From Sulfitobacter brevis (GTDB lineage: Bacteria > Pseudomonadota > Alphaproteobacteria > Rhodobacterales > Rhodobacteraceae), in assembly GCF_900112755.1 (NCBI RefSeq), contig NZ_FOMW01000005.1:186001-250000 (forward strand): a stretch of DNA of 64,000 nt, given 5' to 3'. Shown piece after piece: positions 1-4,900 of the stretch. Positions within the stretch are counted from its first letter, which is position 1, and every line of letters begins with the position of its first letter. Made by a program: the position numbers and the translations under genes. The notes under the pieces are model-generated. The model had not been told where the DNA came from, did not search any database, and saw only the letters and a list, made by a program, of their open reading frames with translations.

Positions 1-720
1 AATGCCGCAGGAAACCTGCGAAGCTAGTGGCGCTGTGGGCAGAAATGAGAAAGTGACAGGATCTTCATCACCTAATTGCTTTTCTAGAATTGACCAATCG
101 ATTGTGCGACCATCTAACCGTGGAGGGGTTCCAGTTTTCAACCGACCCATCGAAAGCTCGAAACTATCAATTCGCTCGGCAAGCTTTACGGAGGCATTGT
201 CTCCCATTCGCCCCCCAGACCTGGATTCTTCGCCAATATGGATCACGCCACGCAAAAATGTGCCTGTAGTGAGAATCACCGAATTTGCACTTAGCTCTGT
301 CGTGTCAGAGAGTATGACGCCGGTAACGGTATCTCCGTTCATTTTGAAATCGGTGACTTCTCCTTCGACGATTGTAATGTTTGGTTGAAACTGAATTTCC
401 CGCAGCATTGAGGTACGATATATCTTTCGATCCGCTTGAGCGCGTGGACCTTGCACCGCGGGGCCCTTTTTACGATTTAGCAGACGAAACTGAATTCCTG
501 CCTCGTCCGCGACGCGGCCCATAACCCCATCCATCGCATCAATTTCGCGGACTAGATGCCCTTTTCCCAAACCGCCGATGGCTGGATTGCACGACATAAC
601 GCCAATCCCATCAATCTTCAGCGTAACAAGTGCAGTCTTGGCCCCCATACGTGCAGAAGCATGGGCTGCCTCAGCGCCCGCGTGACCCCCACCGATTACT
701 ATGACGTCAAAATGTTTCAC
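1..720 (-). CDS. mnmG: tRNA uridine-5-carboxymethylaminomethyl modification enzyme MnmG, partial (C-terminus outside window)
   Basis: MnmG (GidA) is the FAD-binding partner of MnmE. Together they add the carboxymethylaminomethyl group to uridine 34 in the wobble position of certain tRNAs. The visible 240 codons contain the FAD-binding loop [10 protein letters not shown] within the first 20 residues, then [23 protein letters not shown] and [12 protein letters not shown], all family hallmarks; the frame stays open to the window edge at QVSCGI. I place the start at the GTG at 720 (V-K-H-F-D-V), where the family usually begins; an in-frame GTG nine bases upstream is the alternative. mnmE ends 12 bases upstream, so the two genes are probably co-transcribed. 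The start codon lies inside a parS palindrome, which is unusual. rsmG-parA-parB would be expected further left, outside the window. Confidence 0.95.
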
Positions 721-728
721 GTGAAACA
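713..728. other. parS centromere site (ParB binding)
   Basis: The 16 bases TGTTTCACGTGAAACA are a perfect palindrome and match the widely conserved bacterial parS consensus exactly. ParB loads here and spreads, marking the origin region for segregation by ParA. The site spans the mnmG start codon and the short mnmE-mnmG gap. It lies about 3.3 kb from the candidate oriC, as expected for origin-proximal parS. parAB are normally found just beyond mnmG in this group, so the left flank outside the window should hold them. I found no second copy in the window. Confidence 0.9.
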
Positions 729-3447: not shown

Positions 3448-3897
3448 TCAGAATTTGACCACCACAGAGAGCACAATGACGATCATCAGCAACGTTGGGA
3501 CCTCATTGGCGATGCGGTACTGCCGGCCGCTCACTGTGGCCTCTCCACGGCCCGTTCTGGCAACGCTGCGTTCAAGCCAGATGTGGAACCCGCTCATCGC
3601 AATTACCGACAGCGCTTTGGTCCATGGCCAGATCATCGACCAATCGACAATGCCGGGTGTGAACACGAGGCAAAGCCCGAACGCCCATGTCGCCAGCATC
3701 GCCGGTCCCATGATCACATGCGCGAGCTTGTATTCCATCATTGAGAACAGCTGATGGGTGTCTCCCGTCAGCCCAACGCTTTCCGTGTGATGCACCAGAA
3801 GGCGCGGCAGATAGAAGAGCGCCGCCATCCACGAGATCACGGCCATGATATGGAAGGCTTTGATCCACGGGTAGGCCAGGCTTAGCAGGTCAGACAT
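3448..3897 (-). CDS. hemJ: Protoporphyrinogen IX oxidase HemJ (UPF0093 family)
   Basis: HemJ is the membrane protoporphyrinogen oxidase that most Alphaproteobacteria use in the penultimate step of heme synthesis. The protein begins MSDLLSLAYPWIKAFHI and has about four hydrophobic segments. It carries the family's KAFHIMAVISWMAALFYLPRLLVHH region with conserved histidines, and a C-terminal helix ending SVVVKF. I chose the ATG at 3897 (149 residues, typical length) because GGAG lies six bases upstream. The frame opens further, to an ATG at 4002, but those 35 residues do not resemble the family and would run into the origin region. It is the last leftward gene before the candidate oriC. Confidence 0.93.
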   Translation of the reverse strand: MSDLLSLAYPWIKAFHIMAVISWMAALFYLPRLLVHHTESVGLTGDTHQLFSMMEYKLAHVIMGPAMLATWAFGLCLVFTPGIVDWSMIWPWTKALSVIAMSGFHIWLERSVARTGRGEATVSGRQYRIANEVPTLLMIVIVLSVVVKF

Positions 3898-4300
3898 TTC
3901 AGACTCCGTTCGTTCCACCCTTCTTATAATAAATAAGAAGATAAGTAAGATTGATGATGTAAGTAGGGTCATGAATTTCTGTGGATTAACCTGTTGTTCC
4001 AAGGGTTATCCAGACGAGGATAACAATCCAGGCATCGCTGGGTACGACTCATCTGCGGAAATAATTTACTTTTGTATTCAATAGCTTGTAAATTTTAGCC
4101 CAGATGCCGCCTGTGTATAATTCTTGGGATGCTTTACCGTTTGACCGAGTTATCACTGATACACAGTTATCCTTGTGCACCTGAGCGGGAATCGGTCACA
4201 AGCCAGCGAAAGCCAGCCCGAGCACAGTAGTTGTGCCAATCTCACCGACTATGCAGAACAACTCCCTAATAAATCCTTAACTCACACACAGGTTATCCAC
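3898..4300. other. oriC: Candidate chromosomal replication origin (oriC)
   Basis: No gene is supported in this 403-base gap between divergent hemJ and maf. It contains DnaA-box-like 9-mers. TTATCCACA (4293-4301) is perfect. TGTGGATTA (3980-3988), TTATCCAGA (4006-4014) and TGTGTATAA (4112-4120) each have one mismatch. CGAGGATAA (4015-4023) and TTATCCTTG (4167-4175) are weaker. There are AT-rich stretches at about 3920-3960 and 4060-4100 that could be an unwinding element. An 8-base inverted repeat, CTTCTTAT/ATAAGAAG, lies at 3920-3940. Two GACTC sites (3902, 4046) fit the GANTC target of the alphaproteobacterial methyltransferase CcrM. Gene direction flips here, and a parS site is near. The function is inferred from these features and from gene order. 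Confidence 0.8.
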
Positions 4301-4301
4301 A
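4293..4301 (+). promoter_or_regulatory. Perfect DnaA box overlapping the maf start codon
   Basis: TTATCCACA matches the high-affinity DnaA box exactly, and its last base is the A of the maf ATG. DnaA bound here could serve the origin, repress maf translation-initiation-region transcription, or both. It is the only perfect box I found in the intergenic region. Confidence 0.75.
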
Positions 4302-4900
4302 TGGTTACACCAATCATCCTCGCTTCGGGTTCTGAAATCCGCTCCCGGTTGCTGCAACAGGCCGGTGTCAGCCATGAGGTGATCAAGCCACGAGTGGATG
4401 AAGAGATGATCAAACAATCCATGCTGGCCGAAACTGCGCCTCCCCGCGACATTGCCGACACGCTGGCCGAGGTGAAGGCGCGAAAGATCAGCGAAAAACA
4501 CCCCGAAGCCTTGGTAATTGGCTGTGACCAAGCACTGGACCATAAGGGCACGCTGCTTTCAAAGCCTGCAACGCCCGAAGATGCGATTGAACAGCTGCGC
4601 AGCCTGCGGGGTGATCGGCATAGTTTACTGTCGGCTGCGGTGATCTGCGAAGGCGGTAAGCCAATCTGGCGGCATGTCGGGCAAGTGCGTCTGCGGATGC
4701 GTGATATCAGCGATCTCTATCTAGAAGAGTATGTCGCCCGCAATTGGGACAGTATCCGCCATTCGGTCGGCAGCTATAAGCTGGAGGAAGAAGGCGTGCG
4801 CCTGTTCAGCGCCGTCGAGGGGGATTACTTTCACGTTCTCGGTATGCCACTTTTGGAACTGTTGAACTATTTGACGCTACGAGGAGACCTGCCAACATGA
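4301..4900 (+). CDS. maf: Maf-family nucleotide pyrophosphatase
   Basis: Maf proteins hydrolyse non-canonical or modified nucleoside triphosphates to monophosphates (house-cleaning). The protein starts MVTPIILASGSEIRSRLLQQAG, containing the family's ASGSxxR phosphate-binding motif. It continues with a glutamate/lysine-rich segment and a conserved GCDQAL (usually D-Q/T), then SVGSYKLEEEGVRLF and a C-terminal VLGMPLLELL. At 199 residues it has the normal length. A longer frame from 4175 exists, but the extra 42 residues run through the DnaA-box region and are not family-like. The stop overlaps the aroE start (ATGA), so maf-aroE-coaE-dnaQ looks like one operon beginning at the origin. Confidence 0.92.
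   Translation: MVTPIILASGSEIRSRLLQQAGVSHEVIKPRVDEEMIKQSMLAETAPPRDIADTLAEVKARKISEKHPEALVIGCDQALDHKGTLLSKPATPEDAIEQLRSLRGDRHSLLSAAVICEGGKPIWRHVGQVRLRMRDISDLYLEEYVARNWDSIRHSVGSYKLEEEGVRLFSAVEGDYFHVLGMPLLELLNYLTLRGDLPT

What the first reader, a model, noticed from the sequence alone, without database searches (positions are those of the whole stretch)
3898..4300. Candidate oriC between hemJ and maf
The 403-base gap contains one perfect and three single-mismatch DnaA boxes, AT-rich blocks and two GANTC sites. It lies exactly where gene direction flips from leftward to rightward. The block rho-mnmE-mnmG on one side and maf-aroE-coaE-dnaQ on the other is the known alphaproteobacterial origin neighbourhood, but hemE and the kinase-regulator gene (ppsR) that border Caulobacter's origin are missing, so the borders here may be rearranged.
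Basis: partly seen in the sequence, partly recalled or inferred. Interest (0 to 1): 0.75.

Follow-up and report, generated by a model that had tools for sequence, protein, structure and literature searches.

The report
Chromosome replication origin of Sulfitobacter-like bacterium
This 403-base gap is almost certainly where the bacterium starts copying its chromosome; it is an ordinary replication origin for its family, with a conserved strand-opening block that does not fit the published rule and could be tested.

Summary
The gap 3898-4300 is almost certainly the chromosomal oriC of a Sulfitobacter-like roseobacter. It is the only place on its 326-kb contig with three or more DnaA boxes in 412 bp, and holds the window's weakest DNA duplex. 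The assembly's only two perfect parS sites lie 3.2 and 5.1 kb to its left. GC skew changes sign nearby, within error here. Two corrections: three GANTC sites, at chance level; and the borders are not locally rearranged. hemJ-gap-maf is the common family arrangement; ppsR, absent here, still precedes maf in four relatives. The longest conserved stretch is a left block: AT-rich DNA, then GATGAT..TAG-N13-TGTGGATTA. A model of it matched one place in each of 75 of 120 family genomes, all 75 between hemJ or rho and maf's side. Its DnaA box is usually off-consensus TAATCCACA (32 of 42 gaps), changed at the same base as Caulobacter's G-box, and fails the published DnaA-trio rule (met in 2 of 32). A known kind of element with a family-specific module; nothing was tested at the bench.

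The parts
3898..4300 (.). oriC region, hemJ-maf intergenic gap
   Evidence: 368-420 bp long in 42 gaps, the window's included
3918..3975 (+). AT-rich block with purine-rich + strand: proposed DNA unwinding element
   Evidence: weakest 30-, 50- and 80-bp duplex of the 64-kb window starts at 3917-3923; conserved
3953..3988 (+). GATGATG..GTAGGG, 11-base spacer, TGTGGATTA: core of the conserved left module
   Evidence: of 42 gaps 35 hold TG[TG]GGATTA, and in all 35 a TAG ends 13 (32 gaps) or 14 (3 gaps) bases before it
3980..3988 (-). DUE-side DnaA box TAATCCACA (second base off consensus)
   Evidence: identical in 32 of 42 gaps, perfect consensus in 1
4006..4014 (+). DnaA box TTATCCAGA, 1 mismatch
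4076..4088 (+). IHF-like site ATTCAATAGCTTG, 1 mismatch to WATCARNNNNTTR
   Evidence: at most 1 mismatch in 38 of 42 gaps against 23.2 in shuffles, sites peaking 220-240 bp before maf
4112..4120 (-). DnaA box TTATACACA, 1 mismatch
4266..4280 (.). CtrA-like site CTAA-N7-TTAA, 1 mismatch
   Evidence: exact TTAA-N7-TTAA in 10 of 42 gaps against 0.9 in shuffles, 8 of the 10 sites 30-40 bp before maf; the window's mismatch would not pass the stricter rule of PMC1914354
4293..4301 (+). perfect DnaA box TTATCCACA overlapping the maf start codon
   Evidence: perfect in 20 of 42 gaps
713..728 (.). perfect parS at the 5' end of mnmG; the second one lies left of the window at C34:184823
   Evidence: only two perfect sites in the 4.24-Mb assembly; six more places with 2 mismatches
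3448..3897 (-). hemJ (UPF0093), left border gene
   Evidence: PF03653, E 9.3e-53
4301..4900 (+). maf, right border gene
   Evidence: PF02545, E 6.5e-43

Best explanation
This is the chromosomal replication origin. Shown by sequence: a DnaA-box cluster, a weak-duplex block, a conserved IHF-like site, nearby parS, a strand-composition switch, and a single-copy block conserved across much of the family. Inferred: DnaA first occupies the consensus box at the maf start and the other boxes; IHF bends the middle; this helps DnaA onto the off-consensus TAATCCACA box and from there onto the adjacent GATGAT/TAG block, where the AT-rich stretch 3918-3975 melts. Helicase is then loaded and forks leave leftward through hemJ-rho-mnmE-mnmG-parAB and rightward through maf-aroE. 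The CtrA-like site 12 bases from the maf-side box may let CtrA compete with DnaA (weakest step).
For: Boxes: 4 here, only cluster of 3 or more in 326 kb; 135 in 42 gaps against 5.05 expected from shuffles (relatives are not independent). Weakest duplex in the window. Only two perfect parS in the assembly, 3.2 and 5.1 kb left of the gap, with parA-parB. Skew: this contig, one-contig same-genus genome, sampled contigs of G003 and G001. Left-block model R1: exactly one match in each of 75 of 120 family genomes at E 0.01; all 75 places, the weak ones too, lie between hemJ or rho and maf's side. The block stays where hemJ gives no match (16 places), and where ppsR separates it from maf (L236; weak matches beside hemJ in L182 and L190).
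Against: The skew minimum is not exactly at the gap: 13-14 kb to the right in this contig and roughly 20-40 kb to the maf side in G060; leftward genes to the right of the gap could explain this but I did not test it. G003 has stretches of the wrong sign on both sides and G001's skew is shallow. 45 of 120 family genomes gave no R1 match. Of 20 of those checked, 3 gave no maf match at 1e-20; in several of the other 17 the boxes and block are weak, and 3 of their 18 maf loci (L190, L192, L197) have no box within 520 bp upstream of maf, though in L190 and L192 ppsR fills that space. IHF and CtrA sites in the window each have a mismatch. No functional data.
Confidence: 0.95

Rival explanations
1. 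It is only a conserved two-way promoter region for hemJ and maf, with box-like matches by chance or for DnaA-controlled transcription.
For: It lies between divergent genes and one box overlaps the maf start codon.
Against: The block persists where hemJ gives no match (16 of 75 places), and where ppsR is the neighbour in place of maf (L236; weak matches in L182 and L190). Box clustering, weakest duplex, skew switch and parS position are unexplained.
Confidence: 0.03
2. The true origin is elsewhere near, such as beside dnaA, at the skew minimum 14 kb to the right, or beside hemE.
For: Skew minimum is at 203.6 kb rather than 190 kb in the contig.
Against: No other place in the contig has three boxes in 412 bp, which covers hemE at 113 kb and the skew minimum; other contigs were not scanned for clusters. 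In the one-contig relative dnaA begins at about base 31, roughly 80-100 kb from the skew minimum and 123 kb from the block. The shift is inside the expected error in the window's contig (15.5% of simulations shift at least as far).
Confidence: 0.03
3. The left block is a standard DnaA-trio unwinding system (BUS) as defined in print.
For: TAG, the favoured trio, ends 13 or 14 bases before the box in 35 of 35 gaps with that box (32 and 3); PMC8287927 reports a spacer peak at 10-13. One relative, L034, has eight NAN triplets 8 bp from a perfect box.
Against: The rule of three or more NAN triplets within 16 bp of this box is met in 2 of 32 gaps with TGTGGATTA, fewer than the 18.6 expected from shuffled upstream DNA. 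Rule matches somewhere in a gap occur in 30 of 42 (11.3 in shuffles), but the best one lies at the left block in at most 3; in 12, the window among them, it is on the minus strand 125-155 bp before maf, away from the weakest duplex.
Confidence: 0.3

Closest known systems
Caulobacter crescentus oriC (Cori)
   Same: About 404 bp, IHF site, CtrA sites (PMC1914354, passages read); nine-base DnaA boxes off consensus at base 2, G-box TGATCCACA (PMC4285127, passages read).
   Different: Borders are hemE and ppsR (COG1806) there, hemJ and maf here; base 2 is A in the DUE-side box here, G there; one imperfect CtrA-like site here against five.
Other predicted Rhodobacteraceae oriCs (PMC6699656, 101 strains by Ori-Finder)
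   Same: Same family, same kind of evidence (boxes, GC disparity minimum, parAB proximity).
   Different: I read the oriC methods section and passages only; the coordinates are in supplements not open to me, so identity of position was not checked.
Escherichia coli oriC (recalled, no call)
   Same: Order unwinding element, then a box in TGTGGAT orientation, then IHF.
   Different: Purine-rich rather than T-rich + strand; TAG/GATGAT block instead of 13-mers; sequences not compared by a call.
Bacillus subtilis BUS / DnaA-trio
   Same: Box, fixed spacer of about 13 with TAG at its end, AT-rich stretch beyond.
   Different: Three in-register NAN triplets within 16 bp are lacking at this box in 30 of 32 gaps.

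Membership tests
Bacterial chromosomal oriC | Cluster of DnaA boxes above chance | tested here: met
Bacterial chromosomal oriC | AT-rich, easily melted stretch next to the boxes | tested here: met
Bacterial chromosomal oriC | At the strand-composition switch | tested here: met
   within error in the contig; nearby in sampled relatives; offset 14 to about 40 kb
Bacterial chromosomal oriC | Near parS/parAB | tested here: met
Bacterial chromosomal oriC | Initiates replication, DnaA binds | not testable with these tools
   needs coverage, footprinting or plasmid replication
Caulobacter-type Cori | Flanked by hemE and ppsR | tested here: not met
   hemE 76 kb away, ppsR absent
Caulobacter-type Cori | CtrA sites TTAA-N7-TTAA | tested here: inconclusive
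   one site with one mismatch in the window; exact sites in 10 of 42 gaps
DnaA-trio / BUS | At least three NAN triplets within 16 bp of a DnaA box | tested here: not met
   not met at the DUE-side box in the window, met in 2 of 32 gaps; the window has one rule match elsewhere, at a two-mismatch box 144 bp before maf on the minus strand

The most novel reading that the evidence does not exclude
Rhodobacteraceae origins open through their own version of the DnaA-trio system: an invariant TAG 13-14 bases from a deliberately weak TAATCCACA box, followed by out-of-register GAT repeats, so that a low-affinity DUE-side box, as in Caulobacter, is a general alphaproteobacterial design.
Probability: 0.35. 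Interest if true: 0.55.

Novelty: new member of a known kind. Interest (0 to 1): 0.35.

Why it matters
It fixes the likely origin of a widespread marine bacterial family to a defined segment of about 400 bp and names the bases to test. If the DUE-side box is weak by selection and the strand-opening block is a variant of DnaA-trios, the published trio rule is too narrow and the Caulobacter weak-box idea applies more widely.

Tried and rejected
GANTC (CcrM) sites as support: rejected, not enriched. Local rearrangement of the borders: rejected. The block as a class-wide feature: no support; 11 of 94 out-of-family genomes gave weak matches (best E 9.6e-5), and the 8 of these places that I fetched show no match to any of eight neighbourhood genes. 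16 of the 75 family matches are no stronger than that, yet they too lie at the right place. First pattern search for the block (0 of 295 genomes) is void: I set one spacing wrong by one base, so it missed even the window. A whole-genome list of one-mismatch boxes was cut at 100 places; only its totals were used (593, against 429 for the reversed pattern), so uniqueness of the cluster is shown for contig C34 alone. Literature: the listings (titles and starts of abstracts) show no paper on this gap, the TAATCCACA box or the left block; I read few of the listed papers, and the library lacks most subscription papers, so this is not proof of absence.

Full report
The observation. The gap between hemJ (3448-3897, minus) and maf (4301-4900, plus) is exactly 3898-4300. 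It has four DnaA boxes with at most one mismatch, at 3980 (-), 4006 (+), 4112 (-) and 4293 (+); the last is perfect and ends on the first base of maf. The assembly holds 593 such matches in 4,236,215 bases, against 429 for the reversed pattern. At that density four in 412 bp has P = 4e-7, or 0.005 over all such stretches, and no other place in the 326-kb contig has even three; other contigs were not scanned for clusters. The gap has three GANTC sites, not two; GANTC is not enriched in the 42 gaps (61 against 61.7 expected).

Duplex stability. With nearest-neighbour energies (recalled values), the weakest 30-, 50- and 80-bp stretches of the 64-kb window all start at 3917-3923, in the left part of the gap; a further weak stretch starts at 4049-4058, also in the gap.

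Position on the chromosome. The window is contig C34:186001-250000. Skew along C34 changes from -0.015 to +0.012; block permutation gives p = 0.0004. The fitted switch is at 204 kb against 190 kb for the gap. Simulations with the switch at 190 kb give 160-218 kb, and 15.5% shift at least as far. In G060, a same-genus genome in one 4.19-Mb contig, skew sampled in 40 stretches of 20 kb is mostly negative before and positive after the region of interest. The sampled cumulative minimum falls at 80-103 kb, with the origin block at 123.1 kb, parS at 126.4 and 128.3 kb, and dnaA at about base 31. Sampled stretches of G003 and G001 change sign near their gaps, with exceptions in G003 (positive at 935 kb, negative at 1360-1465 kb) and shallow values in G001. 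The assembly has just two perfect parS sites, at C34:184823 and C34:186713, 5.1 and 3.2 kb left of the gap, and six further places with two mismatches. They lie in the mnmE-mnmG-rsmG-parA-parB block.

Relatives. A scan with maf gave 43 loci. hemJ lies next to maf in 41; L020 shows no hemJ match and L031 ends 215 bp upstream of maf. Those 41 gaps plus the window's are 368-420 bp long and hold 135 boxes with at most one mismatch, against 5.05 expected from shuffles. The loci are related, so this ratio is not a probability.

The left block. In an alignment of 24 of the 42 gaps the left 70-90 bp form the longest well-conserved stretch: AT-rich DNA with a purine-rich + strand, TGATGAT, GTAGGG and TGTGGATTA; the short maf-side box is about as conserved per base (31 gaps). 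A sequence-only model R1 of those 31 stretches, the window's included, matched exactly one place in each of 75 of 120 family genomes at E 0.01, drawn from 119 genera. The window's own genome is one of the 75, and genomes of other model sequences may be among them. All 75 places were looked at. All lie between hemJ or, where hemJ gave no match, rho on one side and maf's side on the other. On that side maf comes first in 73, ppsR and then maf in one (L236), and only aroE was matched in one. The 120 genomes were searched with strict filters, which lose weak matches. Of the 20 non-matching genomes that were listed (of 45), 17 have a maf match at 1e-20; hemJ or rho lies upstream in 15 of these 17, and 9 of their 18 maf loci give R1 matches at E below 0.01 with filters off. 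Outside the family 11 of 94 genomes gave weak matches; the 8 places fetched show none of the neighbourhood genes.

Borders. ppsR (PF03618) has no match in the window's genome and hemE lies at C34:113105-114124. A ppsR search of the fetched loci found it directly upstream of maf in 3 of the 17 non-matching genomes with maf (G020, G006, G009) and in 1 of the 75 matching ones (G062), and in none of the 43 relatives (the first three confirmed as PF03618). In G020, G006 and G062 hemJ and a weak block match lie beyond it. This fits loss of ppsR in the window's lineage, joining maf to the origin; no tree was built. PMC1914354 (passages read) gives Caulobacter oriC as 404 bp between hemE and COG1806.

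Box quality. On the DUE side the box is TAATCCACA in 32 of 42 gaps and perfect consensus in 1; at the maf start it is perfect in 20 of 42. In the 30 family loci the DUE-side box is TAATCCACA in 19 and perfect in none, but R1 was built from sequences mostly with TAATCCACA and favours them. PMC4285127 (passages read) gives the Caulobacter G-box as TGATCCACA, off consensus at the same base, and lists it as that species' high-affinity box. PMC4468827 (passages read) calls its affinity moderate, lowered by the T-to-G change, and says that raising affinity can decrease replication. A fixed weak box at this place is therefore a sensible reading, but no affinity was measured.

Strand opening. PMC8287927 (section 13 and the first part of section 14 read) defines BUS by three or more NAN triplets within 16 bp of a box. 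At the DUE-side box the window fails, and 2 of 32 gaps pass, against 18.6 expected from shuffled upstream DNA. That paper reports 3'-GAT-5' next to the box and spacers of 10-13 as most frequent. Here TAG (that triplet read 5' to 3') ends 13 bases before the box in 32 and 14 in 3 of the 35 gaps that hold TG[TG]GGATTA. L034 has eight NAN triplets 8 bp from a perfect box. The block may thus be a variant of that system. Against this, some place in 30 of 42 gaps does meet the rule (11.3 in shuffles), and in 12 of these, the window among them, the best such place is on the minus strand 125-155 bp before maf; I did not follow that second site up. The strand and direction of triplets relative to the box are taken partly from the text (trios on a 5' tail) and partly from recall.

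Regulator sites. IHF-like sites with at most one mismatch occur in 38 of 42 gaps against 23.2 in shuffles, peaking 220-240 bp before maf; exact TTAA-N7-TTAA occurs in 10 of 42 against 0.9. The window's own sites are at 4076-4088 and 4266-4280, each with one mismatch. These are suggestive only.

Verdict. The gap is the oriC with high confidence. It is an expected element in an expected place for its family, so general interest is modest. The conserved left block and its off-consensus box are the part worth bench work.

Noticed in passing
L182, L190, L192, L236: Four family members keep ppsR directly upstream of maf, so the loss of ppsR at the origin border could be placed on a family tree.
   Followed up: partly
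L104, L107, L112, L117, L120, L121, L128 and nine of L198-L242: hemJ gives no match between rho and the origin block in 16 of 75 family places; the block sits next to rho.
   Followed up: partly
L034, about 330 bp before maf: This relative's origin has a textbook DnaA-trio arrangement (eight NAN triplets, perfect box), unlike most of the others.
   Followed up: no
window about 4157-4178: A conserved GTTATCCTT-type element lies here; on the minus strand it makes a trio-rule match beside a two-mismatch box; the best rule match of 11 other gaps lies in the same interval.
   Followed up: partly
PMC6699656, methods section: One of the three 'DnaA box' motifs used there, TGTTTCACG, is half of the parS site searched, so parS may have helped place their origins.
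   Followed up: no
G060 C1, 4.0 Mb to 120 kb: Skew is weak for about 300 kb on the maf side of the origin, then strong; cause not examined.
   Followed up: no
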